From Akkermansia muciniphila (GTDB lineage: Bacteria > Verrucomicrobiota > Verrucomicrobiia > Verrucomicrobiales > DEV007): a DNA stretch of 64,000 nt. The stretch lies in NCBI GenBank assembly GCA_945883495.1, contig CAMCXS010000025.1, positions 1-64,000 of the forward strand. Direction: 5' to 3'. The notes under the pieces are model-generated. The model was given only the letters and a program-made list of their open reading frames with translations. It made no database searches and was not told where the DNA came from. Position numbers and translations under genes: made by a program. Numbering within the stretch: position 1 is the stretch's first letter; each line of letters starts with the position of its first letter. Positions 23,418 through 56,143 of the stretch are shown here, piece after piece.

Positions 23418-23503
23418 TCTGTCTGCAATGGAGTCCGGCCCCGACCGCTTCGGGCCAAGTGCCGGGATGGAGCCTCAGATCGCGTTCTTCATTCCTTCCC
23501 TCC

Positions 23504-23571
23504 GTTAAGCGTTTGGCGTTAAGCGTTTGGCGTTAGGCGTTTGGAGTTAGGCGTTTGGAGTTAGGCGTTTA
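23504..23571. repeat. 14-bp tandem repeat, about 4.9 copies
   Basis: Copies at 23504, 23518, 23532, 23546 and 23560: two of GTTAAGCGTTTGGC, two of GTTAGGCGTTTGGA and a partial one. The copies fall into two sequence classes in order, as expected from local duplication. Confidence 0.9.
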
Positions 23572-40702: not shown

Positions 40703-40760
40703 GATCGGTGCTAGAGAAACGCGGGAGAAAACCAAAGGCAAAAGCTTTGCTGTCGAACTA

Positions 40761-40811
40761 TTGTCCAGCATGTGGAAAAAATGTCTAAAATACTATGGAC
40801 AAAGCTTAGAC
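40761..40811. promoter_or_regulatory. Nested inverted repeats upstream of the sigma factor gene
   Basis: TTGTCCA (40761-40767) is matched by TGGACAA (40796-40802), and GTCTAA (40783-40788) by TTAGAC (40806-40811). The GTCTA core is shared with the direct repeats before the MerR-type gene (42148-42169). These look like regulator-binding sites 20-70 bp before the ECF gene start. Confidence 0.5.
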
Positions 40812-40830: not shown

Positions 40831-41424
40831 ATGGACTTGGCAGGTGAAACACACAACGTCCCATCGGGAGAGGTCGATGATGCTCCGCTGATGGAAGGAA
40901 TCGCGGCAGGAGACCGGTCGGCATTTGAGCAGCTGCACCGGAAATTCTCAGGATTGGTCTTCGCTACGGCGTACCGGGTGCTCAACGATCCGCACGATGC
41001 GGAAGAGGTCGCCCAGGAAGTATTTTCCGGGGTTTGGAACAAGAGTCGGCTTTACGACGCCCGCCGCGGGAAGCCGCAGGTTTGGCTTTCAACGATGGCA
41101 CGCAACCGGGCGATCGATCGGCTGCGCTCCAAACAGCGTCGGGCGCAGTTGCGGGACGATCTGCAGGTGGAACAGGCACCAGAAACCTTCCGGCCCGATC
41201 AAGGCGTGGTCGAGGAAGTGCGGCGCACGGAGGAGTCGCTCGTTTTGCGCGATGCACTTTTGAGATTGAAGCCGGAGCAACGCGAGGTGATCGAGATGAC
41301 CTACTTCAAGGGGCTGTCCCAAAGCCAAGCCGCCGAGGCGCTCGGGGCACCTTTGGGAACCGTCAAGGCTCGCATCCGCAGAGGCATCACCCGGCTGCGG
41401 ACAATCGTAACGGACCTGGGATGA
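40831..41424 (+). CDS. ECF RNA polymerase sigma factor
   Basis: 197 aa, ATG start. Sigma-70 region 2 is about residues 25-95 (FEQLHRKFSGLVFATAYRVLNDPHDAEEVAQEVFSGVW) and region 4 is about 135-190 (RLKPEQREVIEMTYFKGLSQSQAAEALGAPLGTVKARIRRG). No anti-sigma gene follows; instead its ATGA overlaps the SDR gene. By position ahead of the MerR-type regulator and the carotenoid genes it may activate them, as CarQ and LitS do in other bacteria; that link is inference. Confidence 0.92.
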   Translation: MDLAGETHNVPSGEVDDAPLMEGIAAGDRSAFEQLHRKFSGLVFATAYRVLNDPHDAEEVAQEVFSGVWNKSRLYDARRGKPQVWLSTMARNRAIDRLRSKQRRAQLRDDLQVEQAPETFRPDQGVVEEVRRTEESLVLRDALLRLKPEQREVIEMTYFKGLSQSQAAEALGAPLGTVKARIRRGITRLRTIVTDLG

Positions 41425-42137
41425 GCAGTCCGTACGGATTCGACAAAATCTTGGTCACCGGGGCAGGCAGCGGAATCGGAGCAGCCTGCACTCGAATTCT
41501 CGCCGAAAGGGGCAAATCCTTGGTTCTGACGGGGCTTTCTCCACAAAAGCTCGACGCGATATCAGCTGGGCTGCCCGCCGGTCACGTTTGGACCCGGGCG
41601 GCAGATGTCACCCAAGCGGCGGCCGTGCGCGAGCTCTTTGACGAAGCAGTGGAACGTTTTGGGGGCATCGACGCAGTGATCCACTGTGCCGGGGTCGGCT
41701 TGATTCGCCCGCTCGAAGAAGTAGGCGGGCCTGAATTCCTTCACGTGATGAACGTGAATGCCCGGGGAACTTTTCACGTTTTGAAGGAGGCCTGCCGTGT
41801 CATGGCACCGGCGAAGAAGGGCCGATTTATGACCATCCCAGGCATTCTCGGCATTCGTCCCATGAAAGCAGCAACCGTCTACTGCGCCAGCAAATACGCG
41901 GTAACCGGCTTGATCCAAGCCGCCGCCGAAGAATACCGGCGGCATCATTTGCAGTTCTCTCTCTATCACTTCGGAGGGGTCGATACGCCCTTTTGGGATG
42001 GCATCGACATGCGGGTGGATCGCGCCCAGATGATCCCCGCGGAGGTGGCGGCGCGCCGGATTTGCGACGACTTGGATCTTCCGGGCCATCTCGTGCCCGG
42101 CCAGACGATCCTGCAACCGGCGTCACACCAGCTCTAA
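41421..42137 (+). CDS. Short-chain dehydrogenase/reductase
   Basis: 238 aa from the ATG at 41421 in an ATGA overlap with the sigma factor gene; a longer frame starting inside that gene is a shadow. TGAGSGIGAA is the cofactor loop, HCAGVG the NAG-like motif, and YCASK the catalytic Tyr-x3-Lys. The usual Ser in the motif before Tyr is replaced in FMTIPGILGIRPMKAA, where the expected SS is TIPG, so activity may be altered. Substrate unknown. Confidence 0.85.
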   Translation: MSSPYGFDKILVTGAGSGIGAACTRILAERGKSLVLTGLSPQKLDAISAGLPAGHVWTRAADVTQAAAVRELFDEAVERFGGIDAVIHCAGVGLIRPLEEVGGPEFLHVMNVNARGTFHVLKEACRVMAPAKKGRFMTIPGILGIRPMKAATVYCASKYAVTGLIQAAAEEYRRHHLQFSLYHFGGVDTPFWDGIDMRVDRAQMIPAEVAARRICDDLDLPGHLVPGQTILQPASHQL

Positions 42138-42147
42138 TTTGTTTGCA

Positions 42148-42169
42148 TTTGTCTATTCTTTGTCTAGAA
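42148..42169 (+). promoter_or_regulatory. Two 11-bp direct repeats, candidate CarH/LitR-type operator
   Basis: TTTGTCTA occurs at 42148-42155 and again exactly 11 bp later at 42159-42166, 35 bp before the MerR-type gene. A weaker copy (TTTGTTTG) precedes them by 10 bp. CarH of Thermus is known to bind tandem 11-bp direct repeats, and such genes are often autoregulated, so this fits an operator of the adjacent regulator. Confidence 0.6.
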
Positions 42170-42203
42170 ATAGGCCGACCCAACTTTGTGAAACTTCGAC
42201 AGA

Positions 42204-43187
42204 ATGGTAAGGGATGAACGTTTCCAGATCAGCACGGTGGCCCGGCTCACGGGTTTAAGCGTGCACACCATCCGGGCTTGGGAAAAACGCTACAACGTTG
42301 TTTCTCCAGGCCGGACGGACACCCATCGGCGGCTTTATTCCCGGGAAGACATCCGCAAACTTACTCTGCTTAAGGGCCTCGTCGATGACGGCAACCCGAT
42401 TGGCTTGATCGCTGGACTGTCAGCGGATCAGCTGGCCGGCCGCTCAAATCACGTGGCGCGGCTCAGCAACGGTTCCACCAACGGAAGCGTCTCGAAGGCA
42501 AAGCGGCACTGCTCCGTTCTCGTCGTCGGCGAGGCGCTGCGCGGCATGTTCGCGGCAGAGGCTGGCGATCTGGAAGGGTTGGAGCCCGTCGCCATGTTTG
42601 GTTCCCTGGCATCGGTGCCGCATCCTCCGAGTCCTCGGCCTGTCGAGCTCCTTGTGGTGGAAACACCGACTTTGTTTTCGGAAACCATCGAGTCGGTTTC
42701 CACCCTGCTCAACGATTGCGGGGCCCGGCGAGCGATCCTGATTTACGGCTTCGGGCAGCGAGAGACACTGCGCCAACTTCTGGGAGCGCCCCGCATCACA
42801 GCGATTCGAGGTCCGATCCGCGCGGCCGAGTTACGGCTGGCGGCCTCTCCGGAAGTCGATGCGGCACAATCCGAACCCAGCTGGCCGACCTCCTTCCCCT
42901 TGGACGGCGCCTCGGGTTTGGCTGCGATCCCGCCGCGCCGCTTCAGCCGCGAGCAATTGGCCAAGCTCTCCCGGATCTCCAGCACCGTGCAGTGCGAGTG
43001 TCCGCAACATCTCGGAAAGCTTCTCTCGGACTTGACCGCCTTCGAACAATACAGTTTGGAGTGCGAGAACCGGTCCCCGGAAGATGCCCGCATCCACGCA
43101 TTTCTTCATCTTTCCACGGCCCGGGCGCGGGCCCTGCTTGAGGAGGCGTTGTCCCGGGTCCTCGAAAGTGAAGGCATTAGGATCTGA
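42204..43187 (+). CDS. CarA/CarH-like MerR family regulator lacking a visible cobalamin motif
   Basis: 327 aa, ATG start. Residues 8-78 form a MerR helix-turn-helix (FQISTVARLTGLSVHTIRAWEKRYNVVSPGRTDTHRRLYS), the subfamily of MlrA/CarA/LitR. Residues about 100-215 look like a Rossmann-type sensor domain (CSVLVVGEALRGMF, VELLVVETPTLF, RAILIYGFGQ). The C-terminal ~80 residues are helical. The DxHxxG and W-x9-EH cobalamin signatures of CarH were not found, so light sensing by B12 is unlikely. It directly precedes the carotenoid genes and is the probable local regulator. Confidence 0.82.
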   Translation: MVRDERFQISTVARLTGLSVHTIRAWEKRYNVVSPGRTDTHRRLYSREDIRKLTLLKGLVDDGNPIGLIAGLSADQLAGRSNHVARLSNGSTNGSVSKAKRHCSVLVVGEALRGMFAAEAGDLEGLEPVAMFGSLASVPHPPSPRPVELLVVETPTLFSETIESVSTLLNDCGARRAILIYGFGQRETLRQLLGAPRITAIRGPIRAAELRLAASPEVDAAQSEPSWPTSFPLDGASGLAAIPPRRFSREQLAKLSRISSTVQCECPQHLGKLLSDLTAFEQYSLECENRSPEDARIHAFLHLSTARARALLEEALSRVLESEGIRI

Positions 43188-43223: not shown

Positions 43224-44753
43224 ATGAGTTCCGCCAAGTCGAAGTCCGTCATCATCATCGGAGCCGGTCCCGGAGGGTTGGCGTCAGCCATTCTCCTGGC
43301 CAATCGCGGGTTTCGTGTCCGAGTCATCGAACGAATGCCAGTCGTGGGCGGCCGAACCTCCAGCTTGACGGAAGGGCCCTACACTTTCGATCTCGGTCCG
43401 ACGTTTTTTCTGTATCCCCAAGTCCTGCAAAAAATCCTCGCGGAAGTCGGACGGGATCTGCATCAGGAACTCGACCTCAAGCGCCTCGACCCGCAGTACC
43501 GCATCATGTTTGGTGAAGGGGGCTCGATCGACGCCACCCCGGACCCGGCGGGCATGCGGCAGCAAATCGCCAAAATCGCCCCGGAAGACGCGGATGGGTT
43601 CGAACGGTTCATGGCGGAGAATCGCCGCAAGCTGGCAACCTTCGCTCCGGTTTTGGAAAGTCCGTTCTCCGGTTGGGGGGATCTCTTGAATCGCCGCCTC
43701 CTTGATGCCTTGCCCCAGCTCAATCCGCATCAATCCGTCGATTCCTACCTGCGCAAATTCTTCAAGGATCCACGGATCCGGCTGGCCTTCTGTTTTCAAT
43801 CGAAATACCTGGGGATGTCGCCGTTCCGCTGCCCCAGCTTGTTCTCGATTCTGTCGTTCCTGGAATACGAGCACGGCGTGTTCCACCCGATCGGTGGATG
43901 CGCGGCGATCTCCCAGGCGTTGGCGCGGATCGCGCGGGAGATGGGCGTGGAAATCAACCTGGGCGAGCCGGTGAAGTCGATCCGGTTTGAAGGCAAACAG
44001 GCGACCGGCGTGGTGACGTCGGAGGGAAGCTATGCGTGCGACGCCCTGGTCATCAATGCCGACTTCGCCCGGGCCATGACTTCACTGGTTCCGGATCAAC
44101 TGCGTCGCAAGTGGACGGACAAGAAGATCGCCTCGAAGAAATTTTCGTGTTCCACCTTCATGATCTATCTCGGGATCGAGGGAAAATACGACATCCCGCA
44201 CCACACAATCTTTATCTCCGAGAATTACGAAGAGAATCTCGCCGAGATCGACCGCCACCACGTTCTCAGCAAGCATCCTTCCTTTTATGTGCAGAACGCT
44301 TCGGTGACAGATCCAACGTTAGCACCTTCAGACGGCTCCACTCTCTACATTCTGGCGCCGGTGACCCATGATACCGGATCGATCGATTGGAAGACGCAAG
44401 CCAAGCCCTTCCGCGATATGCTGATGAAGCGCCTGGAACTAGCCGGATACCACGGACTGGAGGAACGCATCCGTTTCGAACGGGTGATCACGCCGACGGA
44501 TTGGGATTCTCAATATAATATCTACCGGGGCGCGACGTTCAACCTGGCGCACAGCCTGGATCAAATGCTCCACTTCCGTCCGAGAAACCGGTTTGAAGAT
44601 CTCGAAGGCGTGTATCTGGTGGGCGGAGGAACTCACCCCGGAAGTGGCCTGCCCGTGATCTTCGAGTCCGCCCGGATTACCGCCGACCTGATGAGCTCCG
44701 ATTTCGGAGCCTCGATTCCCGCACGGGCTTCGTTACAAACCGTGGCCGCCTGA
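43224..44753 (+). CDS. Carotenoid desaturase, CrtN/CrtI family
   Basis: 509 aa, ATG start. The FAD-binding N-terminus VIIIGAGPGGLASAILLANRGFRVRVIER and GGRTSSL are followed by the desaturase motif FDLGPTFFLYPQVL. YLGMSPFRCPSLFSILSFLEYEHGVFHPIGG and a C-terminal GGGTHPGSGLPVIFESARI complete the CrtI/CrtN pattern. Order with aldehyde dehydrogenase, second desaturase/oxidase, acyltransferase and glycosyltransferase matches C30 carotenoid clusters, so it likely dehydrogenates diapophytoene or squalene. The exact substrate (C30 or C40) is not decided by sequence. Confidence 0.88.
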   Translation: MSSAKSKSVIIIGAGPGGLASAILLANRGFRVRVIERMPVVGGRTSSLTEGPYTFDLGPTFFLYPQVLQKILAEVGRDLHQELDLKRLDPQYRIMFGEGGSIDATPDPAGMRQQIAKIAPEDADGFERFMAENRRKLATFAPVLESPFSGWGDLLNRRLLDALPQLNPHQSVDSYLRKFFKDPRIRLAFCFQSKYLGMSPFRCPSLFSILSFLEYEHGVFHPIGGCAAISQALARIAREMGVEINLGEPVKSIRFEGKQATGVVTSEGSYACDALVINADFARAMTSLVPDQLRRKWTDKKIASKKFSCSTFMIYLGIEGKYDIPHHTIFISENYEENLAEIDRHHVLSKHPSFYVQNASVTDPTLAPSDGSTLYILAPVTHDTGSIDWKTQAKPFRDMLMKRLELAGYHGLEERIRFERVITPTDWDSQYNIYRGATFNLAHSLDQMLHFRPRNRFEDLEGVYLVGGGTHPGSGLPVIFESARITADLMSSDFGASIPARASLQTVAA

Positions 44754-44765
44754 TTTCTTTTGAAC

Positions 44766-46253
44766 ATGCTTGCCCCAGAAAGCGCCACGACTGCTCCCGG
44801 AAAGAAGAGCTGGGAAGCCCTCCGACGTGCGCAACGTGAGTGGGCGGCACATTCGGTCCCCGAGCGGTTGCGGGTGATCGTTCGCTTGCGGGCCTTGCTG
44901 GTGCGTCATGCCAGCCGATTGGCCGCCGCCAGCGCCCGGGTGCGATGCGTAGATCCCGCGGAAGTGATTACGTCCGAAGTCTTGCCCTTGGCGGAGGGCT
45001 GCCGGTTTCTCGAATCCCAAGCGGCCGGGCTGCTGGCCCCTCGTCAACTCGGCGCCATGGATCGCCCGCTTTGGCTGAGCGGGGTCCGCACCACGATCCG
45101 CCGCGAGCCCTGCGGCGTGATCCTCATCCTGGCCCCTTCGAATTACCCGCTCTTCTTGGCCGGCTCGCAAATGATCCAAGCCCTCGCCGCCGGAAACGCA
45201 GTCCTCGCGAAACCGGCCCCGGGCGCGCTTGAACCTCTCGCCATTCTTCGTGATTTGCTGATCCAGTCCGGACTGCCCACCGGCCTCCTGGAGCTGCTGC
45301 CCGAAGATGTGCCCGCCGTCCACCAACTGATTCGCGACGAAGCGGACAAAGTGGTCCTCACGGGGGGCATGGCAGCCGGCCGGGCCGTCCTGCAAACCTG
45401 CGCCGACGCCATTGTGCCCGCCACCGTCGAGCTTTCTGGAATTGACTCGGTCCATGTGTTGGACGACGCCGATCCGGTCCGGGCGGCTGACCTGCTGCTC
45501 TACGGGCTGGCCTTGAACCGGGGCAGGACCTGCATCGCTCCTCGTCGCATATTTGTGCATCAGGCCGTCTCTGGGGACCTGCGCGCGGCCCTTCAAGATC
45601 GTTTCCGCTCCCGCCGGGCGCCCATCACCGAGCTTTCGCCCTGGGTGCGCAAAGCCTTGAATGAGGCTCTCGCCCAAGGCGCCAAGGTCCTGGCCGGAGC
45701 ATGGTCCGACGCCGAGGGGCTCTTCCGCTATCCGTTGATCCTGGAACACGTTCCAGGCCCCTCCCAGCTTCGCCAAGACGATCACTTTGGTCCGATTGCC
45801 GTGCTGCAAGAAGTTACGAGCGAACAGGAGGCTCTCGAACTTGACCGGGCCTGCCCTTTCGCCTTGGGAGCCACGGTATTTTCCCGCGATGAACGGCGCG
45901 CTTCCGCCTTCGCCGCGCAGCTGTCCGCTGGTTCCGTGACGGTGAACGATCTCATCGTTCCGACCGCCGATCCCCGGGTTCCCTTCGGAGGACGCAAGCT
46001 CTCCGGATTTGGAGTCACCCGCGGTGCGGAAGGTCTGCTGGAAATGACCACGGCTCAGGTGATCAGCTCGCGTCGCGCGAACTCCTGGCTCCCGCACCTT
46101 GACGCCCCCGCTTCTGGAGACGAGGAACGGTTTACGCACCTATTGAATCTATTGCACGGGAACGGCCTTTGGAGCCGCCTGGGCAGCCTCCGTCATCTCC
46201 TCACTCAAGGACGGCGGAACAATCGATCGAACGAAAACAGCAATCACGGATGA
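44766..46253 (+). CDS. Aldehyde dehydrogenase of carotenoid cluster (diapolycopenal-type)
   Basis: 495 aa from the ATG at 44766. APSNYP (Asn126) corresponds to the PWN motif, Glu222 in VELSGIDS to the general base, and Cys256 in GRTCIAPRR to the nucleophile. In staphyloxanthin-like routes an ALDH oxidises the terminal aldehyde of diapolycopenal/diaponeurosporenal to the acid; position between two Crt genes supports that role. Its stop overlaps the next start (ATGA). The C-terminal ~60 residues (FTHLLNLLHGNGLWSRLGSL) extend beyond the standard fold. Confidence 0.87.
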   Translation: MLAPESATTAPGKKSWEALRRAQREWAAHSVPERLRVIVRLRALLVRHASRLAAASARVRCVDPAEVITSEVLPLAEGCRFLESQAAGLLAPRQLGAMDRPLWLSGVRTTIRREPCGVILILAPSNYPLFLAGSQMIQALAAGNAVLAKPAPGALEPLAILRDLLIQSGLPTGLLELLPEDVPAVHQLIRDEADKVVLTGGMAAGRAVLQTCADAIVPATVELSGIDSVHVLDDADPVRAADLLLYGLALNRGRTCIAPRRIFVHQAVSGDLRAALQDRFRSRRAPITELSPWVRKALNEALAQGAKVLAGAWSDAEGLFRYPLILEHVPGPSQLRQDDHFGPIAVLQEVTSEQEALELDRACPFALGATVFSRDERRASAFAAQLSAGSVTVNDLIVPTADPRVPFGGRKLSGFGVTRGAEGLLEMTTAQVISSRRANSWLPHLDAPASGDEERFTHLLNLLHGNGLWSRLGSLRHLLTQGRRNNRSNENSNHG

Positions 46254-47773
46254 ACAAGGAGAAGACAGCAGTGATCGGTGGAGGACTGGGTGGCTTGGCG
46301 GCTGCTTGCACATTGGCCGCCCGTGGCCATGCGGTGACTCTGTTTGAGCGCAATGAGTGGGCCGGTGGCAAAGCGGCCGTCTTGGAAAAAGACGGCTTCC
46401 GCTTCGATATGGGGCCGACCATCCTCACCATCCCTTCCGTGCTCCGCCGCATTTATTCCGAAGCCGGCAAGAAGCTGGAAGAGCACATGGATTTGGTCGA
46501 GCTCGACCCGCAATGGCGCTGCTTCTTCTCCGATGGCAACAAGCTCGATCTCACCAAGGCGGTCGATGCCATGGGCCAACAGCTCAACGAATTCACCGGC
46601 AATCCCAACGCGGCGGACGAATACAACCGTTTCCTCGATTGGTCCCAGGATCTCCACGGTATCTCGGATCGCTTCTTCTTCTGGAAGCCGGTCGGCGGCA
46701 TTATGGACGTTTTCCGCAGCAGCGGCGTCCTGGATCGCGGCCTGCTTCAGGATCTCTTGAAGATGCGCATGGGCCAAACCGTGGCCTCGTCGATCCGTTC
46801 CTTCATTGGCGACGCTCGCGCCGCCCAAATGATCGATCACTTTACGCAATATGTCGGATCTTCCCCGGATGCCTCGCCCGCCATCCTTTGCGGGATCGCC
46901 CACATGCAAACCTCGGAAGGCGTTTGGTATCCGATGGGGGGCACCCGGGCCGTGCCGGTCGCGTTGGAGAAACTCGCCAAGGAACTCGGTGTCGAATTCC
47001 GGCTCGGCACCAAGGTGGAAAAAATCGCCCATGACGGCAAGCGCGTCACCGGCGTGGTCACAGCCGATGGTAAAACGACGCCGTTCCAGCGAGTCGTTTC
47101 GAATTGCGACTCCGTGCGCACCTTCCGCGAGTTGATTGGCGGGAATCTGTCGATCGACTTCGACAAAGCCCGGCCCTACGAGCCCGCCTGCTCCGGCGTG
47201 GTCCTTTACCTCGGATTGAACAAGCGCTACGAGGAGCTGCTCCACCACAACTTCGTGTTCTCCCGGGATCCCGACGAAGAATTCCACGCGATCTACGAAG
47301 AAGGCGAACCGGCGCCCGATCCAACTTGTTACGTCTGCGCTCCGGCCGTCACCGAACCGGCCGTGGCCCCGCCGGGCGGCGAAGCCCTCTACATTCTGGT
47401 CCACACGCCGTACCTCCGTCCCAACCAGGACTGGACCAAGATGCTTCCCAGCTATCGCCAAGTCATACTCGACAAGCTCAAGTCGACCGCTGGGCTCAGC
47501 GATATCGAAGACCGCATCGTCAGCGAAAGTCACCTCACCCCGCGGGATATCCACAACCGCTACCACGTCCTCAATGGGGCGATCTACGGTTTGGCCAGCC
47601 ACGGCACGTTCCGCGGCGCCTTCAAGCCGAACAACCGGCGCAAGGAGTTGCAGGGGCTTTACCTCTGCGGCGGCGCGGCCCACCCCGGGCCTGGCATGCC
47701 GATGGTGCTCATGTCTGGTTGGATCGCGGCGGATGCACTGGACAAGGATCAACCGGCCCCGGTCGCCGCTTGA
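46250..47773 (+). CDS. Second CrtI-family enzyme, CrtP/CrtNb-like carotenoid oxidase
   Basis: 507 aa from the ATG at 46250 (ATGA overlap with the ALDH gene). VIGGGLGGLAAACTLAARGHAVTLFERNEWAGGKAA binds FAD, FDMGPTILTIPSVL follows, and the C-terminus is GGAAHPGPGMPMVLMSGW. The divergence from the first Crt protein in this cluster and the operon order suggest a division of labour: one desaturase, one terminal-methyl oxidase feeding the aldehyde dehydrogenase. Which is which should not be taken as settled. Confidence 0.85.
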   Translation: MNKEKTAVIGGGLGGLAAACTLAARGHAVTLFERNEWAGGKAAVLEKDGFRFDMGPTILTIPSVLRRIYSEAGKKLEEHMDLVELDPQWRCFFSDGNKLDLTKAVDAMGQQLNEFTGNPNAADEYNRFLDWSQDLHGISDRFFFWKPVGGIMDVFRSSGVLDRGLLQDLLKMRMGQTVASSIRSFIGDARAAQMIDHFTQYVGSSPDASPAILCGIAHMQTSEGVWYPMGGTRAVPVALEKLAKELGVEFRLGTKVEKIAHDGKRVTGVVTADGKTTPFQRVVSNCDSVRTFRELIGGNLSIDFDKARPYEPACSGVVLYLGLNKRYEELLHHNFVFSRDPDEEFHAIYEEGEPAPDPTCYVCAPAVTEPAVAPPGGEALYILVHTPYLRPNQDWTKMLPSYRQVILDKLKSTAGLSDIEDRIVSESHLTPRDIHNRYHVLNGAIYGLASHGTFRGAFKPNNRRKELQGLYLCGGAAHPGPGMPMVLMSGWIAADALDKDQPAPVAA

Positions 47774-47790
47774 TCCCGGGCTCCATCGCC

Positions 47791-48570
47791 ATGCGCACGA
47801 GCCCACAAATCCGGGCTCCTCACCCGTGGTTCTCCCGGTGGTTTAGTGGTTACGCCGCCAAGCGTCTGCGCCGCCACTTCCATCGGGTGCGCCTCCTTGA
47901 CGGCGAATCCTTGAGCGATCCAAAAGACCGGCCGTTGGTCATCTACGGCAATCATCCAAGCTGGTGGGATCCCATGGCTGCCTTGGCCATCAAACCCATC
48001 TTCTATCCGAATCGCGAAGCCTACGCCCCGATCGATGCGGAGATGCTGGAACGCTATGGCGTCTTCAAATCCCTCGGCTTCTTTGGCGTCGAACGCGACT
48101 CCGTGCGAGGCGTCGCCGGATTTCTCGATCACGCCGAAGCGATTTTGCGCCGTCCGCGGTCCATGCTCTTCCTGACGCCGCAGAGCCGGTTTGCCGACGT
48201 CCGGGAGCGCCCCGTCCGGCTGCAACGCGGCATCGCCCACCTCGCCGCGCGCGTGCCGGAGACGGTGTTCGTGCCGTTGGCGATGGAGCTGACCTACTGG
48301 GAAGAGAGCAAACCGGAGTTGCTCCTCTCCGCCGGCACCGCCGCGACCCACGCGCCAGGCGCGTCCCGCGGGGAAACCTTGGCCCGGCTGGAACAATCGC
48401 TCGAACAAGCCATGGACCGGCTCGCCGAAGCCTCCATCGCGCGCCGGTCCGAGGCGTTTTCCGATCTCTTCATCGGCTCGGCAGGCGTAGGAGGACTTTA
48501 CGATGCCTGGAGAGCGCTAAAGGCGATCGCTCGCGGCCGGAAAATCAATCTGCATCACAGCGAACGGTGA
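47791..48570 (+). CDS. PlsC-family acyltransferase of carotenoid cluster
   Basis: 259 aa from the ATG at 47791; a TTG at 47770 overlapping the previous stop (TTGA) would add seven residues. The acyltransferase motif NHPSWWDP (H-x4-D) is followed by FFGVERDSVRG and FLTPQSRFADVRERP. No multi-span membrane region. By analogy with CrtO of staphyloxanthin synthesis, it would acylate the glycosylated carotenoid acid. The stop overlaps the glycosyltransferase start (GTGA). Confidence 0.82.
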   Translation: MRTSPQIRAPHPWFSRWFSGYAAKRLRRHFHRVRLLDGESLSDPKDRPLVIYGNHPSWWDPMAALAIKPIFYPNREAYAPIDAEMLERYGVFKSLGFFGVERDSVRGVAGFLDHAEAILRRPRSMLFLTPQSRFADVRERPVRLQRGIAHLAARVPETVFVPLAMELTYWEESKPELLLSAGTAATHAPGASRGETLARLEQSLEQAMDRLAEASIARRSEAFSDLFIGSAGVGGLYDAWRALKAIARGRKINLHHSER

Positions 48571-49706
48571 GCCTCGATCCTTGGATTCTCATAGCCGGTA
48601 TCCTCCTCTACCTGGCCGCCTTCCCCGCCGTTATGTTCTTCGTGAATCTGGCGATTTTCAGAGCGCCGTCCGCGCGCCCTGAACTGGCCCCCCCAGGCGT
48701 TTCCGTCCTCATCCCGGCCCGGAACGAAGAACACAACATCCGCGAAGTCCTCGCCTCCGTGCTGGCTTCCCGGGACATCGACTTGGAAGTGCTGGTACTT
48801 GATGACCATTCCACCGATCGCACCGCGGCCGAAGCAGAACAACTCGCCGCCTCGGACCCAAGGCTCCGCCTCATCCGCGGAGCGGCCTTGCCCTCCGGTT
48901 GGGCGGGCAAGATGTTCGCGTGCCAGCAACTCGCCGAGGCCGCTACCCGGGATTGGCTGATGTTCCTCGATGCAGACGTCCGGATCACGCCGGATGCCGT
49001 GCGCCGCCTCATGGATCATGCCCGGAGCGCCCCGAACCAACCCGCCCTGGTCAGCGGAGTCCCCCGCCAACTCACCGGCACCTGGTTGGAAAGACTCCTC
49101 GTCCCGCTGATCGACTTTATCCTGCTAGGCTATCTCCCGGTTTGGGCGATGCGCCGGAGTCCGAGCCCCTCGCTCGCCGCCGCAGTAGGACAGCTCGTGC
49201 TGGTGAAACGGGAGAGCTACTTCACGTGCGGAGGCCACGCCGCGATTCGCACCACATTCCACGACGGAGTCAAACTTCCTCGCGAGCTGCGGCGTCACGG
49301 CTTTTTCACGGATCTTGTCGATATCTCCGGGTTGGCCACCTGCCGCATGTACCAGAGCACCCGGCAAACTTGGAACGGTTTTCTCAAGAACGCCGCTGAG
49401 GGACTGGGCGCCCCGGGCGTTATCCTTCCGATGACCGTGATCTTGATCGGCGGACAAGTCGCACCTTGGATCCTGCTCGGCGTCCCTGGGATGGACGGGC
49501 TTGTGCGTGAGCTACTGCTGATCGCAGGCGTTCTCGGCTATTTGCCAAGGATCGCGGCGGCTATGCGGTTTCAGCAGCCGTGGCTGGGCGTCTTGCTGCA
49601 TCCCGCTGGCATCCTCATCATGGAGCTCATCCAATGGACCGGCTTCCTCCGTCACCTCTGCGGCATCCGCACCGAGTGGAAAGGCCGCCCTTGGGTGAGA
49701 GCATGA
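48567..49706 (+). CDS. GT2 glycosyltransferase, CrtQ-like
   Basis: 379 aa, GTG start in a GTGA overlap; a longer frame into the acyltransferase gene is a shadow. An N-terminal membrane helix (LIAGILLYLAAFPAVMFFV) is followed by a family-2 catalytic domain with VSVLIPARNEEHNIREVL, LVLDDHSTDRT, and the metal-binding FLDADVRI. C-terminal hydrophobic helices (VILPMTVILIGG, ELLLIAGVLGYL) anchor it. In the cluster it probably glycosylates the carotenoid carboxylic acid. Confidence 0.87.
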   Translation: MSLDPWILIAGILLYLAAFPAVMFFVNLAIFRAPSARPELAPPGVSVLIPARNEEHNIREVLASVLASRDIDLEVLVLDDHSTDRTAAEAEQLAASDPRLRLIRGAALPSGWAGKMFACQQLAEAATRDWLMFLDADVRITPDAVRRLMDHARSAPNQPALVSGVPRQLTGTWLERLLVPLIDFILLGYLPVWAMRRSPSPSLAAAVGQLVLVKRESYFTCGGHAAIRTTFHDGVKLPRELRRHGFFTDLVDISGLATCRMYQSTRQTWNGFLKNAAEGLGAPGVILPMTVILIGGQVAPWILLGVPGMDGLVRELLLIAGVLGYLPRIAAAMRFQQPWLGVLLHPAGILIMELIQWTGFLRHLCGIRTEWKGRPWVRA

Positions 49707-49857
49707 GCGGCCACCTCTCCACCTCTTGAGGGTTGATCGTGGACTGGGTTGCGCTAGGATCGGCTTTCGTTGGAGAAAAACTGAGCCTTTTTGCCATTCC
49801 CGGCAAATTCCCATCCGTTTTCCTGCCTGCGCAACTCCCGTAGCGAGCCCGCCCTCC

Positions 49858-52707
49858 ATGAGCCTGCCAAAGATCCCGCCGACGCCGGAAATGAAGATTC
49901 AGGAGGGGAAGGACGTTTTTGTTTCCTACTCCCGGAAGGATCAAGAGTTCGTCAAATGGCTCAACGTTCAACTCCAACAATCCGGGCGCGAACCGTGGAT
50001 TGACTGGTCCGGAATTCAGCCGGGAGAGGAGTGGTGGACGTCCATCCTCAAGGGGATTGATTCGGCGAACACCTTTGTCTTTGTCATCAGCCCGGAATCA
50101 CTCCAATCCGCGGTCTGCCCCAAGGAGATTGAGCGCGCGGTCAGCTCAGGCAAACGAATGGTTCCCGTTGTCTGCGGAGACATTCACGGACTGGAAGTCC
50201 ACCAGGAGTTAGCCAAGCTCAACTATATTTTTCTGCGGTCCGAGGACGAGAAGCAAGAGAATCTGCCCAAGCTATTTCAGGCTCTGGATACCGATCTGGA
50301 TCATGTCCAAGCGCATACGAAGTTTCTCATCCGCGCCAGGGAATGGGAGACACGGGGGCACAGCCCCGCTTATCTCCTGCGCGGTGGCCTGCTCCGGGAA
50401 GCTGACGATTGGTTGTCCAAAGTCGGGACAAAATTGCCTGCGCCGACGGAACTTCACGCTCGCTATATTCTGGCGAGCCGGGCCGCCGATCGAAATCGCC
50501 AGAGAGTGACACTGACCGCGATCACGGGTGGCTTATTTTTGGCATTGAGTTTGGCAGCCCTGGCCGTTTGGCAATATCAACAGGCGGAAACCCGCCGGGC
50601 GGAGGCTGAAACACAGAAACAGATTGCGGAAGACCAGACCAGGGTCGCTGAAGAACAGACGGCGATCGCCCAAAAACAGAAGGATCTGGCGGAGGAGCAG
50701 CGCCAGGAAGCCCAGCGCGCCCGAAACGAAGCGGAAACGGCCCGTGATGAGGCCAAGCGACACTTATCCACTAGCGATTACATCCACGGAGACGCGGAAT
50801 TCAAGGCCGACAACTCGGTGGAGGCCATCGCTTATCTGGCCGCCGCTCTGCGCTCGGATCCCAACGCCCGGGCAGCCTACAAGCGACTGTTTACGGAGCT
50901 CTCCGGCCAATGGTTTGCCCTGGAGTCCGGTGAGCCGATCCCGCTTGGCGTCACCCCATGGTCCATCAAATTTCGTCCAGACGATCAAGTGCTGCTCGTC
51001 CAGACTTCGAACGACCAAATTCGAATCCTGGACGTCGCCTCCCGGAAAGATCGACTTCCTCCCGTGAGCTTCCCGGAAGGGACGTTGGCGAATGCAGGGT
51101 TCGACTCTACTGGAGCTTGGTATGGCGGACTCACGATGGAAGATGAAATCGCGATTTGGTCCGCGGAATCTGGAGCCCCATTGCCGCCCGTGGACCCCCG
51201 GCACGCCGGCATCAAGGAAGACATCCTGGCGGCCATGAGAAAAGGGCCGCAGAGATATTACGGCGGACCGGTAACGGATCAGGCCGCCCGTTTTCAAGCA
51301 AGCGGAGAAGACTCGATTGTCCTCCAGAGTGCCTCGGGCGAGCTGATCTCAGAGTTTGAGCCCGAAGACCCCGTCACCATGAAGCTTCAATTCAGCGCGG
51401 ATGGAACATACGTCGCCACGACTTCCCGTTTTGAAGATTCCGAGGTACGCCGCATCGAAACCGGTGACTTGGTAACGATTCAAGGCAGGGGCACTCTGCA
51501 ATCGAGTCCGGGGTTGAATCAGGGCAGGCGCCTGACCAATGGAGTTTTCGACGCCAACGGTTCCCGCTTTGGTGCCTGTGTGGACAATCGTTCCTTGGCC
51601 ATTTGGGAGCTTCCCGAGGCGGAGGGGGAACAGGCTCGCCCCATGTGCAAAGTCCGCTGCCGGGATCTCATTCGCCGCTTCGCCTTCAGCCATCAAGGCG
51701 GGCTGCTGGCCGGGGGAGACACTCAGATTTTCATCTGGAAACTCCGCAAACTCCAACCGCCGATCGACTACGGCGACCTCACGGATGCGATGGACGCTGC
51801 GTTCAGCCCCGATGGAGCTTGGTTGGCCATCCTGACGAATTCTCATTTGAACTTCTATTCCACGGAGTCTGCCAAACTGATCCATCAGCACCAGATTGAG
51901 TTCGGCCAAGCCGTGGCCTGGTTCCCCCAATCGCCGTTGGTGGCGGTGGCGAACGCAGAACGCGTGGAAATTCTCTCCCTGCCCTCTGGCGAAGTGGTGG
52001 CCCGCGCGAACGATGCGATTGGAACGATCGAATCCATGCGCGTGTTTCCCGGTCCGCTGCTGGCGATTGCTTCCCGGAGCGGCTCCGAAAGCGAGAGCGA
52101 TGGCGACACACCTTCACGTCCCGTCATTCACGCCTGGACGTGGCAGCCCGACCGATTGGCTAAGCAGGACCAACACGGGATTGCTTCCGGGATGTTGTCC
52201 GATCCCTCAGTATCGAAGCCATCCCCTCAGTCGGTGATCGTCCTCGGCAAGCCGGGAGAGGCATCGGATCGAGTCTTTGAGCACGAGCGGCCGGTCAATT
52301 CCGCCCACTTGAATCCAACCAGAGACCTGCTGCTGACCGCAACGGGAGATCTTCACGATCGACGGAGCTCCTTCTATGACGGCTTGGTGCAACTCTGGGA
52401 CGTCAAGACAGGGGCCGCGGGAGCCCGGGAGCGTCATTTTGAACGAGCGGTGCGCTTTGCCCACTTCGATGTCTCTGGACGGTGGGTTGTTGCCAGTGAT
52501 GAAATGCAGTGTGAGGTGTGGGACACCGGAGATCCAGCGCTGCTGTCCGCTTTGGAACTGGCGGAAACGGCGGAGGCGATCTGCGGCTGGTGGGTCGATC
52601 CAGACTCCAGCACGCTGGCGCCAGTGAATCAAGAAGCCGCGTTAGCCGCTCTCGCTCAGCGGAACCCACGCAACTGGATGGTCCAAGCGATGTCACCGGC
52701 ACGTTGA
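49858..52707 (+). CDS. TIR - membrane helix - coiled coil - WD40-like protein
   Basis: 949 aa from the ATG at 49858 (44 codons of open frame lie upstream without homology). Residues 18-150 form a TIR domain (DVFVSYSRKDQEFVKWL, WIDWSGIQPGEEWW) with the candidate NADase glutamate Glu90 in CPKEIERAV. A single membrane helix is at about 217-240 (LTAITGGLFLALSLAALAVW), then an E/A/Q/R-rich coiled coil to about 300. The rest (350-930) is a degenerate WD40 propeller (WSIKFRPDDQVLLVQTSNDQIRILDV). Convergent with the Roco-TIR gene. Likely a membrane-tethered receptor whose TIR is cytoplasmic; role in defence or signalling unproven. Confidence 0.85.
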   Translation: MSLPKIPPTPEMKIQEGKDVFVSYSRKDQEFVKWLNVQLQQSGREPWIDWSGIQPGEEWWTSILKGIDSANTFVFVISPESLQSAVCPKEIERAVSSGKRMVPVVCGDIHGLEVHQELAKLNYIFLRSEDEKQENLPKLFQALDTDLDHVQAHTKFLIRAREWETRGHSPAYLLRGGLLREADDWLSKVGTKLPAPTELHARYILASRAADRNRQRVTLTAITGGLFLALSLAALAVWQYQQAETRRAEAETQKQIAEDQTRVAEEQTAIAQKQKDLAEEQRQEAQRARNEAETARDEAKRHLSTSDYIHGDAEFKADNSVEAIAYLAAALRSDPNARAAYKRLFTELSGQWFALESGEPIPLGVTPWSIKFRPDDQVLLVQTSNDQIRILDVASRKDRLPPVSFPEGTLANAGFDSTGAWYGGLTMEDEIAIWSAESGAPLPPVDPRHAGIKEDILAAMRKGPQRYYGGPVTDQAARFQASGEDSIVLQSASGELISEFEPEDPVTMKLQFSADGTYVATTSRFEDSEVRRIETGDLVTIQGRGTLQSSPGLNQGRRLTNGVFDANGSRFGACVDNRSLAIWELPEAEGEQARPMCKVRCRDLIRRFAFSHQGGLLAGGDTQIFIWKLRKLQPPIDYGDLTDAMDAAFSPDGAWLAILTNSHLNFYSTESAKLIHQHQIEFGQAVAWFPQSPLVAVANAERVEILSLPSGEVVARANDAIGTIESMRVFPGPLLAIASRSGSESESDGDTPSRPVIHAWTWQPDRLAKQDQHGIASGMLSDPSVSKPSPQSVIVLGKPGEASDRVFEHERPVNSAHLNPTRDLLLTATGDLHDRRSSFYDGLVQLWDVKTGAAGARERHFERAVRFAHFDVSGRWVVASDEMQCEVWDTGDPALLSALELAETAEAICGWWVDPDSSTLAPVNQEAALAALAQRNPRNWMVQAMSPAR

Positions 52708-52824: not shown

Positions 52825-55464
52825 TCACATCTCCCCAATCATCTCCACCAGCTTCCGCTCCACCACGTTGAAGGCATCGGCGGGCCGCCGATCGTTGAAG
52901 CGGACCGGTTTGCCGTCGGGGATGATGGCTTGAAGGACATTTAGCTCGCTGCGCTCCCAGGCGGGACAATCCTCCAGCAGCACGGAGACGATCCGCAGCT
53001 TGCCTTCCTTCTGCCGTTCCAAAGCGCGTTTCATTTCGACGCCACGAATGTATTTCGAGGCGAAGAACAGCGTGCTGATGAGGCACAGCATCACGTCGCA
53101 GCTCTCCAGTTCCGCCTTGATCGCCTCGTCCCACTTCTGTCCAGGCTGAATCCGCCGGTCCGTCCAGGAGGAAATCAGTTTGTCACTTTCCAGCACCGCC
53201 AAGTTCCGGCTGCGGAAGAGGTCAAACATGTCCGTATCCTCGTGGGCATAGCTGATAAATACCTTCAGCCGCTTGCCTTCCTCCTTGCGGGAGGTTTCCG
53301 AGCTGATCCGGTCAAGCTCGGATTTTTGATTGATGATCTCCGTCCCCTCGTCGGTGATGATCATGGAGGGTTTGCCGCGCTGCTCGTCCTTGAGCAGGGC
53401 ATCGACCCGTTGGTATTTTCCCGGAAATTCCCGGACTTCGATCCATTCCGTCGGTTCCAATCCGCCAAACTGGGCGTTGAGGTGGGCGAAGTGATGCCGG
53501 ATGACTTTGGCGATCCGTTCCTGAGCATCGGCATCTCCGGCGATCGCGACGTCGATCCGCTGCTCCGCGCTATCCGCCAAGACCAACGCCCGGCCGCCGT
53601 CGGTTTCCAGGATCACGCCGTAGCGCCATCGCGGTTGATTCTGGCTCAGGGGATAGGTGCGGGTGATGAAGCGGGGGATGAGGCCTTCTGGGAGGACGGT
53701 GTATTCATACCGCAGCCGCAGGAGATCCCGCCGTTCGCTCCGCCAATCGCCCAGGTTTTGGACCGGGTTTTCTGGGAGAAGATCCGGGACCAGGAGGACA
53801 TCCGGACGGCCGGTAACGGGGAAGCAGAGCTCGAACTTCCGCATCAGCCCCAGGAGATAGGCCACTTCTTCCTCCTTGGCGCCATCCAGCGCGGCGGCGG
53901 CTTCCGCCTGCGTCAGGGTACCATCGCACTCCGGTCCCTGCTTCAGACGCAGGAGACGGTAGATGTTTTGGGTGACCCAGTGCGGATTGAGGACCGCGAT
54001 CTCCTTCAGGTCATCGTCCCCGCTGAAATGGAGCAGAATCCCGAGCTGGTGCAAGATCCGGGCCAGACTGAGCTGGAGATCGGCGTCGGCTTCCCCTTGG
54101 GCGCTGCATTCCTGGCGGAACGCGTCCAAGGAAAGGTAATCCGCCGTCATCCCGGAGAAGCGTTCCTTGGCCTCCCACCAAGCCAGTGGGAATTTTTGCA
54201 GGACCTCGGGGATGGAATTGATCGCGGCCTGGATCTCCCGGTCCAAGTCCACCAATCCGCGCCGGGTCTGGCAATCCGTCTGCAAAATGGCCCGGATCGC
54301 CGGGTATTTCGCGCGCAGGGCCACCTCGTTCACGGAAAAGGGAAATTCGTCGTATTTGTTCAGGCAGATGATCACCGGGGAAGCCTTCCCAAAGCCCGAG
54401 ATGAGCTTGAGCCAGTATTCCGCATCCTGGTTCTGCGTATTCATCCGGCCTTCGATCACCAGGAGGTAGACGCTCCGCTCCGTGAGGAAGAATCGATGGG
54501 TGGCATGGGTGATGGTCTGGCCCGCGAAATCCCAGACATGGACGGTCACGTCGCCAGCCGAGGCTTCGAGGCGGCCGGGGCTGACCTCGATATCGATCCC
54601 TGGAGTTTCCTTCTTGTTGGGATCGAAGGGGCGATCAAAGAGAGCGTCCTTGAGGCAACTCTTCCCAGCCTTGCCCCGGCCCAGGAGGAGAAGCTTCACT
54701 TCATTGAGCGGCCGCGCTCCGGCCATGATGCCGAAGTAGTAGTCGAGGATGGACTGGGGATTGGCTGTCTCTCTCTTTTCCCAGAAAACCTCAGACATGG
54801 TCGGGCCGAGGACTTCTGCGGAGAGGTAGAGCCCTGGATTGCCGTGAAGATGCAGCCGCTTCAATCCATCCTTCGTTCGAAAAGATTCAGGAAGTTTAAT
54901 TAGTTGATTATCCGAAAGACCAATCTCTTGCAGTGATGCAAGCCGGCCCAGGCTCTCTGGGACGGCGCTCAGCTGGTTGCTCGAGAGATACAGCCTTTTC
55001 AGAGAGGCGAGCTGGCCCAAGCTCTCCGGAAGGGCCCTCAGTTGGTTGCTTGAGAGATACAACTTTTCCAACGAGGCGAGCTGGCCCAGGCTCTCGGGAA
55101 GATCGACCAGCTGGTTATCTTGAAGAAAAAGCTCCTTCATCGAGTCCAGCTGACCCAGGCTCTCTGGGAGGGCGACCAGCTGATTGTTCGAGAGATATAG
55201 CCTTTTCAGAGAGGCGAGCTGGCCCAGGTTCTCCGGGAGGGCGCTCAGCTGATTGCACCGAAGGTCAAGCTCTTGGAGCGAGGCGAGTTGACCCAAGCTT
55301 TCCGGGAGGGCGGTGAGGCCCAGATGGCTCAAGTCCAGCTCCGTGGCGCCCGTTCGCAGTGCCTCGGCGATGCGCCGTTCCGCTTCCGCGAATCCTTCCG
55401 CCGCTTGCTGGTCGTTGTCCAGTTCCGCTTTCTCAAAGTTGGTGTCACCGTCATTCCCGGCCAT
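52825..55464 (-). CDS. Roco protein: LRR-ROC-COR with C-terminal TIR domain
   Basis: 879 aa, ATG start. Residues about 40-225 carry eight 23-residue leucine-rich repeats (LPESLGQLASLKRLYLSSNQ type). The ROC GTPase (about 253-420) has the P-loop GRGKAGKS (262-269), DFAGQ (312-316) and NKYD (369-372). The COR region (about 430-640) includes LVPDLLPENP and a dimer-type beta segment. Residues about 733-860 form a TIR domain (KVFISYAHEDTDMF) with the candidate catalytic Glu810 in GVEMKRAL. This LRR sensor + GTPase switch + TIR effector order resembles NLR immune receptors and LRRK2. The ligand, and whether it acts in anti-phage defence, are unknown. Confidence 0.92.
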   Translation of the reverse strand: MAGNDGDTNFEKAELDNDQQAAEGFAEAERRIAEALRTGATELDLSHLGLTALPESLGQLASLQELDLRCNQLSALPENLGQLASLKRLYLSNNQLVALPESLGQLDSMKELFLQDNQLVDLPESLGQLASLEKLYLSSNQLRALPESLGQLASLKRLYLSSNQLSAVPESLGRLASLQEIGLSDNQLIKLPESFRTKDGLKRLHLHGNPGLYLSAEVLGPTMSEVFWEKRETANPQSILDYYFGIMAGARPLNEVKLLLLGRGKAGKSCLKDALFDRPFDPNKKETPGIDIEVSPGRLEASAGDVTVHVWDFAGQTITHATHRFFLTERSVYLLVIEGRMNTQNQDAEYWLKLISGFGKASPVIICLNKYDEFPFSVNEVALRAKYPAIRAILQTDCQTRRGLVDLDREIQAAINSIPEVLQKFPLAWWEAKERFSGMTADYLSLDAFRQECSAQGEADADLQLSLARILHQLGILLHFSGDDDLKEIAVLNPHWVTQNIYRLLRLKQGPECDGTLTQAEAAAALDGAKEEEVAYLLGLMRKFELCFPVTGRPDVLLVPDLLPENPVQNLGDWRSERRDLLRLRYEYTVLPEGLIPRFITRTYPLSQNQPRWRYGVILETDGGRALVLADSAEQRIDVAIAGDADAQERIAKVIRHHFAHLNAQFGGLEPTEWIEVREFPGKYQRVDALLKDEQRGKPSMIITDEGTEIINQKSELDRISSETSRKEEGKRLKVFISYAHEDTDMFDLFRSRNLAVLESDKLISSWTDRRIQPGQKWDEAIKAELESCDVMLCLISTLFFASKYIRGVEMKRALERQKEGKLRIVSVLLEDCPAWERSELNVLQAIIPDGKPVRFNDRRPADAFNVVERKLVEMIGEM

Positions 55465-56143
55465 GGCGGAATCCTAACGGGGGAGGCGTGGGGTGCAACG
55501 GGTTGTTTGGGATTTTGGACCTTTCCGCGACACGGCAAACTCGCCGGAGATATTCATCCAGCATTCCCCGGCTCTCGAAATTCGCCGGAGATATTCATTC
55601 ATCTTTCCCCGGCTCTCGAAACTCGCAGGGGATATTCATCCAACTTTCCCCGGCTCTCGAAACTCGCCGGAGATATTCATCCAACGTTCCCCGGCTCTCG
55701 AAACTCGCCGGAGATATTCATCCAACGTTCCCCGGCTCTCGAAACTCGCAGGAGATATTCATCCACCTTTCCCCGACTCTCGAAACTCGCCGGAGATCTT
55801 CATCCAACGTTCCCCGGCTCTTGAAACTCGCCGGAGATATTCATCCAACGTTCCCCGGCTCTCGAAACTCGCCGGAGACATTCATCCAACGTTCCCCGGC
55901 TCTTGAAACTCGCCGGAGATATTCATTCAGCTCTCCGTGACGCTGCAAATATACGGAAGATTCCCAATGAGCTCTGCGCTGCGGCTCGCATAAAAAGGAT
56001 CACACTTCAATCTCGCCGCTCATCAAGCGGGGAGCAGCAGATCTTGAGCATGTTTAGAAAAATGAGCAAAATTACTATACAGATCGTTTGAAGGATCTAA
56101 TATTTGGCACAGATTAATATTACAGCAACAAACGACAATCAAC
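55465..56143. other. Intergenic region dominated by 41-bp array
   Basis: 679 bp between two divergent genes: 76 bp of leader for the Roco gene, array C (55541-55935), then 208 bp with an AT-rich stretch (e.g. around 56060-56140) that may hold the promoter for the following gene. No gene is credible here. Confidence 0.7.
55541..55935. repeat. Array C: ten 41-bp tandem units
   Basis: The start TCGCCGGAGATATTCAT recurs at 55541, 55582, 55623, 55664, 55705, 55746, 55787, 55828, 55869 and 55910, exactly 41 bp each time. Each unit also contains TTCCCCGGCTCTCGAA. Variation is limited to a few positions, mainly the CAACGTT heptamer (also CAGCATT, CAACTTT, CACCTTT). Because 41 is not a multiple of 3, all three frames stay open in turn, so the translated repeats are an artefact. 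It sits between two divergent gene starts. Confidence 0.95.

What the first reader, a model, noticed from the sequence alone, without database searches (positions are those of the whole stretch)
42148..43187. CarH-like regulator without cobalamin motif but with 11-bp direct-repeat operator
TTTGTCTA is repeated exactly 11 bp apart, 35 bp before a MerR-type regulator that heads the carotenoid genes. Tandem 11-bp repeats are the documented CarH-operator geometry. Yet the protein's sensor region shows neither the DxHxxG nor the W-x9-EH signature, suggesting that B12-dependent light sensing has been replaced by another input or lost.
Basis: partly seen in the sequence, partly recalled or inferred. 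Interest (0 to 1): 0.6.

Follow-up and report, generated by a model that had tools for sequence, protein, structure and literature searches.

The report
CarH-style repressor with swapped sensor
A bacterial switch for carotenoid pigment genes has the same kind of DNA-binding head and DNA sites as the vitamin-B12 light sensor CarH, but its B12 sensor has been replaced by a different, undescribed sensor region with conserved cysteines.

Summary
TTTGTCTA-N3-TTTGTCTA at 42148-42166 is the only perfect pair in the genome. On the other strand it is TnnACA x2 at 11 bp, the published CarH repeat. The protein (42204-43184) lacks all four published CarH cobalamin elements, which 9 of 9 CarH-type relatives keep. 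This looks like a sensor swap, not decay: a CarH-type head, a receiver-like domain, then a helical domain with CECPxH...C...H that no Pfam or NCBIfam family describes. The family spans at least 289 loci. The 11-bp repeat is conserved: 58 of 81 upstream regions, against 1 of 81 and 0 of 62 in controls. Burkholderia homologues with the same motif suggest 'class III LitR', whose chromophore is unknown; I could not test that. The light input is open: the new domain itself, a short BLUF protein, or photo-oxidative stress. HTH-less versions beside ECF genes hint that the sensor half may act on the sigma factor.

The parts
40751..40787 (+). Second operator, in front of the ECF gene: TGTnnA pairs at 40751/40762 and 40771/40782, each 11 bp apart
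   Evidence: same-genus genomes have TTGTCTA pairs at this place (L031, L032)
40831..41424 (+). ECF-type sigma factor, 197 aa; no anti-sigma gene beside it
   Evidence: PF04542 and PF08281; an ECF gene in 35 of 44 Verrucomicrobia-type loci of the family
41421..42137 (+). Short-chain dehydrogenase/reductase (start uncertain)
   Evidence: PF00106, E 5.9e-37
42148..42166 (+). First operator: TTTGTCTA-N3-TTTGTCTA, CarH-type 11-bp direct repeat (TnnACA x2 on the - strand)
42204..43187 (+). LitR-like MerR regulator, 327 aa
42219..42428 (+). CarH-type MerR DNA-binding head (residues 6-75)
   Evidence: hhalign against CarH-type relatives: probability 99.9, 42% identity
42501..42881 (+). Receiver-like alpha/beta domain (residues 100-226), no cobalamin motif
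42933..43178 (+). C-terminal helical Cys/His domain (residues 244-325), no Pfam or NCBIfam family
42993..43010 (+). CECPQH motif (residues 264-269)
   Evidence: C264, E265, C266, P267 in 81 of 81; H269 in 77 of 81; also C287 and H298 in 81 of 81
43224..44753 (+). CrtI/CrtN-family carotenoid desaturase-like gene
   Evidence: TIGR02734, 519 bits against cut-off 238
44760..46253 (+). Aldehyde dehydrogenase (start uncertain)
   Evidence: PF00171, E 1.5e-76
46250..47773 (+). Second CrtI/CrtN-family gene (start at the ATG inside the 46169 frame)
   Evidence: TIGR02734, 409 bits against cut-off 238
47785..48570 (+). Acyltransferase-like gene (start uncertain)
   Evidence: PF01553, 21.1 bits, under the cut-off of 23
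48564..49706 (+). Family 2 glycosyltransferase (start uncertain)
   Evidence: PF00535, E 6.6e-25

Best explanation
The gene encodes a B12-independent, LitR-like repressor. Its CarH-type winged-helix head binds 11-bp TnnACA direct repeats at two promoters: that of the ECF sigma gene (40751-40787) and its own, which also leads the carotenoid genes (42148-42166). Uninduced, it holds both off. A light or photo-oxidative signal is read by the replaced sensor half, a receiver-like domain plus a Cys/His helical domain; this releases the DNA, and the ECF factor and pigment genes are expressed, as in the Streptomyces LitR-LitS circuit. Shown by sequence: the architecture, loss of every CarH cobalamin element, conservation of the operator, the second operator, and linkage to ECF and carotenoid genes. 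Inferred: repression, the nature of the signal, cofactor or metal binding by CxCPxH/C/H, and ECF control of the crt genes.
For: Operator pair in 58 of 81 upstream regions against 1 of 81 and 0 of 62 controls, 28 of 45 after thinning. Pairs before the ECF gene in the window and in 29 of 35 related loci. CarH-type head (42% identity, probability 99.9). 0 of 4 cobalamin elements, with 9 of 9 CarH-type relatives as positive control. Invariant Cys/His residues in the C-terminal domain. The four HTH-less relatives have no repeats. No other B12-binding protein than one 1266-aa frame in the genome. Neighbours in the family: ECF 36, CrtI-like 9, photolyase 8 of 80 loci.
Against: No expression or binding data. 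Repression is assumed from CarH; the published LitR-LitS description has LitR promote litS transcription in light. 23 of 81 upstream regions have no pair, and the Burkholderia and Caballeronia loci have none. The carotenoid link is limited (9 of 80). The promoter scan found no sigma-70-like promoter on the + strand at 42140-42200 under its rules. Two of 81 members match PF02310 weakly.
Confidence: 0.65

Rival explanations
1. Light is read by a separate short BLUF protein that acts as an anti-repressor of this regulator, as E. coli BluF does on BluR and a short LOV protein does on PmlR2; the Cys/His domain serves assembly only.
For: The genome has one short BLUF protein of 151 aa. A relative of it (43% over 139 aa) is the next gene after a family member in gammaproteobacterium L073, and BLUF remnants lie beside two family members of one Verrucomicrobial genome (L034, L049). 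In family f1, 11 of 21 genomes with the sensor have BLUF against 1 of 15 without (p 0.005). BluF-BluR and LOV-PmlR2 are precedents (PMC9758184, Discussion read).
Against: BLUF is on another contig in this genome; 10 of 21 genomes with the sensor lack it; by genus the association is 7 of 12 against 1 of 6, p 0.15; BLUF is near only 3 of 80 loci. It does not explain the invariant Cys/His residues.
Confidence: 0.2
2. The sensor half is an anti-sigma-like module that binds the neighbouring ECF factor, so the protein locks both the ECF promoter and the ECF protein.
For: Of four HTH-less relatives, two lie 61 and 123 bp downstream of an ECF gene on the same strand and one is divergent from one; these have no operator repeats, so their sensor half must act otherwise than by DNA binding. 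No anti-sigma gene lies beside the window's ECF gene.
Against: Four cases only, one without an ECF on its 9.7-kb contig. Only 3 of 36 of the mostly proteobacterial loci have an ECF nearby. No interaction was modelled.
Confidence: 0.15
3. A decayed CarH sensor with lost or CarA-like B12-independent function.
For: Head and operator are CarH-like. Foldseek ranks CarH first for the whole model (E 1.5e-5). Two of 81 members match PF02310 weakly.
Against: The four-helix bundle is absent; the middle domain scores 71 against receivers and 2-3 against B12-binding domains; the C-terminal domain is extra and as conserved as the head.
Confidence: 0.07
4. The repeats are recognition elements of the ECF sigma factor rather than an operator of the MerR protein.
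For: TTGTCTA resembles ECF -10 motifs (recalled), and an ECF gene is close by.
Against: The 11-bp pairs also occur in 20 of 36 mostly proteobacterial loci, of which 3 have an ECF nearby, and in 6 of 9 CarH-type loci; they are absent when the HTH is absent although two of those loci have an ECF directly upstream.
Confidence: 0.05

Closest known systems
CarH / class I LitR (Thermus, Bacillus, Myxococcus, Streptomyces)
   Same: MerR head (42% identity to CarH-type relatives), 11-bp TnnACA direct-repeat operator, link to carotenoid genes
   Different: No helix bundle, no cobalamin signature, receiver-like domain instead of a B12-binding domain, extra C-terminal Cys/His domain
Class III LitR (Burkholderia multivorans)
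   Same: By description a LitR-type protein without a B12 domain, mainly in Burkholderia; Burkholderia and Caballeronia homologues found here share the whole architecture and the CECP motif (33% identity)
   Different: Sequence of the studied protein not available here; the Burkholderia-type loci lack the 11-bp repeat
Class II LitR (Pseudomonas PplR, PmlR2)
   Same: B12-independent LitR-type repressor
   Different: Keeps a B12-binding_2 helix bundle, binds TGTACA-N12-TGTACA, partner is a short LOV protein
Streptomyces LitR-LitS
   Same: MerR regulator controls an ECF gene, next to carotenoid genes
   Different: LitR there uses B12; here the sensor is replaced
E. coli BluR-BluF
   Same: MerR regulator; a short BLUF protein exists in this genome and lies beside a family member in L073
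   Different: BLUF is not linked in the window and is absent from about half of the genomes with this regulator

Membership tests
CarH / class I LitR | CarH-type MerR DNA-binding head | tested here: met
   hhalign probability 99.9, 42% identity
CarH / class I LitR | Operator of TnnACA direct repeats at 11 bp | tested here: met
   sequence only, no binding data
CarH / class I LitR | Cobalamin signature GxxW, EH, GxxH, GxxxP | tested here: not met
   0 of 4 in the window protein, all 4 in 9 of 9 CarH-type relatives
CarH / class I LitR | B12-binding_2 bundle followed by a B12-binding domain | tested here: not met
   No PF02607 or PF02310 hit in the window protein; domain order differs in the model; profile comparison
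Class III LitR | C-terminal domain groups with the B. multivorans protein | tested here: inconclusive
Class III LitR | Light-dependent absorption change of the purified protein | not testable with these tools
   Needs purified protein
Class II LitR | Retains the B12-binding_2 helix bundle | tested here: not met
Class II LitR | Operator TGTACA-N12-TGTACA (18-bp period) | tested here: not met
   Family peak at 11 bp, 58 of 81; 7 of 81 at 18 bp
Class II LitR | Short LOV partner | tested here: inconclusive
   LOV-like motif (recalled) not found in 31 fetched loci, 30 of them PAS_9 matches of this genome
LitR-LitS type circuit | LitR-type regulator controls an ECF gene | tested here: inconclusive
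   Operator repeats before the ECF gene in the window and in 29 of 35 related loci; control itself not testable
LitR-LitS type circuit | The ECF factor drives the crt promoter | not testable with these tools
   Needs transcription assays
BluR-BluF type system | MerR repressor with a linked short BLUF protein | tested here: inconclusive
   BLUF present in the genome but unlinked; linked in L073 and as remnants in L034 and L049
SoxR-type Fe-S MerR regulator | CX2CXCX5C cluster in a short C-terminus (motif recalled) | tested here: not met
   The conserved pattern is CECPxH..C..H in a separate helical domain; TIGR01950 SoxR hits only the HTH, 14 bits against cut-off 117

The most novel reading that the evidence does not exclude
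The receiver-like plus CECPxH module is an undescribed sensor for light or photo-oxidative stress that works in two ways: fused to a CarH-type head it controls DNA binding at 11-bp repeats, and alone beside an ECF gene it controls the sigma factor directly. It would define a B12-free chemistry plugged into the CarH operator system.
Probability: 0.15. Interest if true: 0.8.

Novelty: new variant of a known kind. Interest (0 to 1): 0.55.

Why it matters
It suggests that the CarH DNA-binding head and its 11-bp operator form a module on which different sensors can sit, and it names residues (C264, C266, H269, C287, H298) and two operators with which the unknown chromophore or redox chemistry of B12-free LitR-type proteins can be tested. 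It also connects Verrucomicrobial pigment genes, an ECF factor and possibly a BLUF protein in one circuit.

Tried and rejected
Decayed cobalamin domain: disfavoured. Chance repeat: rejected. ECF promoter element as the source of the repeat: disfavoured.

PDB fold of the C-terminal domain: Foldseek gave nothing at E <= 0.001, and VIA's best was Z 7.7 (rmsd 1.8 A, 64 residues) on a histidine-kinase hairpin; a weak match is no evidence that the fold is new. A PDB sequence search with the domain gave nothing better than E 0.89.

LOV partner: a LOV-like motif (recalled) was sought in 31 fetched loci (30 of the 33 PAS_9 matches of the genome, plus the BLUF locus) and not found; a weak test.

HTH tree: 86 columns, many open forks. 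CarH heads fall with 10 Akkermansiaceae-type members (95/83), consistent with sensor exchange on a shared head but no proof; long branches are flagged.

Mutual exclusion of this regulator and CarH-type proteins in family f1: 1 of 21 genomes with the sensor and 5 of 15 without have a CarH-type protein, p 0.06, not significant.

Regulon beyond the window: the strict pattern (up to 2 mismatches) found no further convincing site in the genome. Photolyase loci L118 and L119 were fetched but their promoters were not analysed. Spread in the phylum: 4 of 288 sampled genomes including this one. A class-wide search around a gammaproteobacterium failed on its centre argument and was dropped.

The first ortholog alignment used minus-strand loci unreversed; it was redone. 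Row L108 was left out of A4 because its copy ends early.

Full report
OBSERVATION. The repeat TTTGTCTA-N3-TTTGTCTA is at 42148-42166 and ends 37 bp before the ATG of a 327-aa MerR-type protein, 42204-43187 including the stop. It is the only perfect copy in the window and in the 6.46-Mb genome. On the other strand it reads TAGACA twice, that is TnnACA at 11 bp, the consensus of CarH operators (5'-nnnnTnnACAn; PMC9304148, passages seen). The gene is followed by two CrtI-family genes, an aldehyde dehydrogenase, an acyltransferase-like gene and a glycosyltransferase. From recall, this set resembles C30, staphyloxanthin-type, carotenoid operons.

NO COBALAMIN SITE. The published light-responsive signature GxxW, EH, GxxH, GxxxP (PMC11796333, passages seen) is absent: 0 of 4 elements. 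Nine CarH-type proteins from the same family and order, brought in by HTH similarity alone, all have the four elements. The only B12-binding match in this genome is in a 1266-aa frame, methionine-synthase-like by size, so no canonical CarH was found in this assembly (96% complete).

WHAT THE SENSOR IS. A search of genome contigs with the family alignment gave 289 loci that encode a relative; the best 80 were kept, labelled mainly Verrucomicrobia and Gammaproteobacteria. AlphaFold2 on 81 sequences (mean pLDDT 88.6, pTM 0.48) gives a MerR head, an alpha/beta domain (about 100-226) and a helical C-terminus. hhalign of the middle domain against receiver domains of the same genome gives probability 71 (E 3.7e-5); against 31 B12-binding domains 2, against the CarH-type domain 3, and against eight unrelated families 7 or less. 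By structure, single receiver domains align at Z 10.1-11.1, rmsd 2.7-3.2 A over 112-120 residues; CarH is ranked first over the whole chain (Z 12.0, 166 residues) but at rmsd 16 A. Against this reading, 2 of 81 members show a weak PF02310 match (best E 0.0032). The C-terminal domain has C264, E265, C266, P267, C287 and H298 in 81 of 81 members and H269 in 77 of 81, and is as conserved as the head (0.66 against 0.64 mean majority frequency). No Pfam or NCBIfam family describes it, and no significant PDB match was found by sequence or fold.

OPERATOR CONSERVATION. In up to 300 bp before the matched gene (81 regions: the window and 80 loci) a TGTnnA pair at 11 bp occurs in 58. The same statistic gives 1 of 81 inside the genes and 0 of 62 at 3 kb upstream, and a mean of 0.81 (maximum 4) in 200 dinucleotide shuffles; the next best spacing reaches 9. 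After thinning at 60% protein identity it is 28 of 45; by group, 38 of 45 Verrucomicrobia-type and 20 of 36 other regions. The 23 regions without a pair are listed. Six of 9 CarH-type loci have such a pair. Four relatives that lack the HTH have none, a useful internal control. The Burkholderia, Caballeronia and Methylomagnum plasmid loci have none either, which counts against one universal operator.

SECOND OPERATOR AND CIRCUIT. Only four 11-bp TGTnnA pairs exist in the whole window (shuffled mean 0.8); three of them lie before the MerR gene (42150) and before the ECF gene (40751, 40771). The two same-genus genomes have TTGTCTA pairs before the ECF gene, and 29 of 35 ECF genes in related loci have a pair within 250 bp upstream; most of these are divergent from the MerR gene and share its upstream region, so the two counts are not independent. 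An ECF gene is in 35 of 44 Verrucomicrobia-type loci and 3 of 36 others. This resembles Streptomyces LitR-LitS, where LitR controls the ECF gene litS and sigma-LitS drives crtE (PMC12705666, passages seen), with another sensor. CrtI-like genes are in 9, photolyase in 8 and fasciclin in 8 of 80 loci, so the carotenoid link is strong in this genus but not general.

BURKHOLDERIA LINK. Plasmid records of Burkholderia anthina, B. arboris and Caballeronia encode homologues that match over 91% of the query at 32% identity; those of B. anthina and Caballeronia, aligned here at 33%, have the CECP motif, as does that of B. arboris. B. anthina has folE, ECF, SDR, photolyase and fasciclin genes nearby; Caballeronia has folE, SDR and ECF. 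Class III LitR is described as mainly in Burkholderia, with a C-terminus unlike known domains and a light-dependent absorption change (PMC9758184, passages and the Discussion seen), and as needing a chromophore other than B12 (PMC6739363, passages seen). The primary paper is not held, so identity is inferred, not tested.

HOW THE SIGNAL ENTERS. Three readings stand. (a) The Cys/His domain binds a cofactor or is a thiol switch for light or photo-oxidative stress. (b) A short BLUF protein acts as anti-repressor: the genome has one; a relative (43% over 139 aa) is the next gene after a family member in L073; in family f1, 11 of 21 genomes with the sensor have BLUF against 1 of 15 without (p 0.005, but p 0.15 by genus). 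(c) The sensor half touches the ECF factor: of four HTH-less relatives, two are 61 and 123 bp downstream of an ECF gene on the same strand, one is divergent from one, and one has none on its contig. I favour (a), with (b) as a possible partner. No step of this is shown.

LITERATURE. Searches for class II and III LitR, B12-independent CarH, MerR with ECF and photolyase, ECF neighbourhoods and pseudo-receiver MerR proteins returned no paper whose listing described this domain. The library lacks most subscription papers, so this is a statement about these searches only.

VERDICT. It is a new variant of the LitR/CarH kind, probably of the Burkholderia class III type.

Noticed in passing
window 49726-52704 (+) and 52828-55464 (-): Two convergent TIR-domain genes: a TIR plus WD40-repeat protein, and an LRR-Roc-COR-TIR protein; they might be immune-like or signalling proteins.
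   Followed up: no
window 55537-55926: Tandem array with a 41-bp unit, 9.5 copies, 92% alike, just beyond the LRR-Roc-COR-TIR gene.
   Followed up: no
window 23503-23570: Short tandem array with a 14-bp unit, 4.9 copies, 96% alike.
   Followed up: no
L218:1489-1941 (contig C72 of the window's genome): Single short BLUF protein of 151 aa with a C-terminal tail shared with the BLUF next to a family member in L073.
   Followed up: partly
L184:5412-6227, L185:6838-7599, L186:7683-8438, L187:9951-10706: Relatives of the sensor half without a DNA-binding head; two of four sit directly downstream of an ECF gene.
   Followed up: partly
family f1 genomes: CarH-type and CECP-type regulators rarely occur together: 1 of 21 genomes with the CECP type and 5 of 15 without it have a CarH type, p 0.06.
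   Followed up: partly
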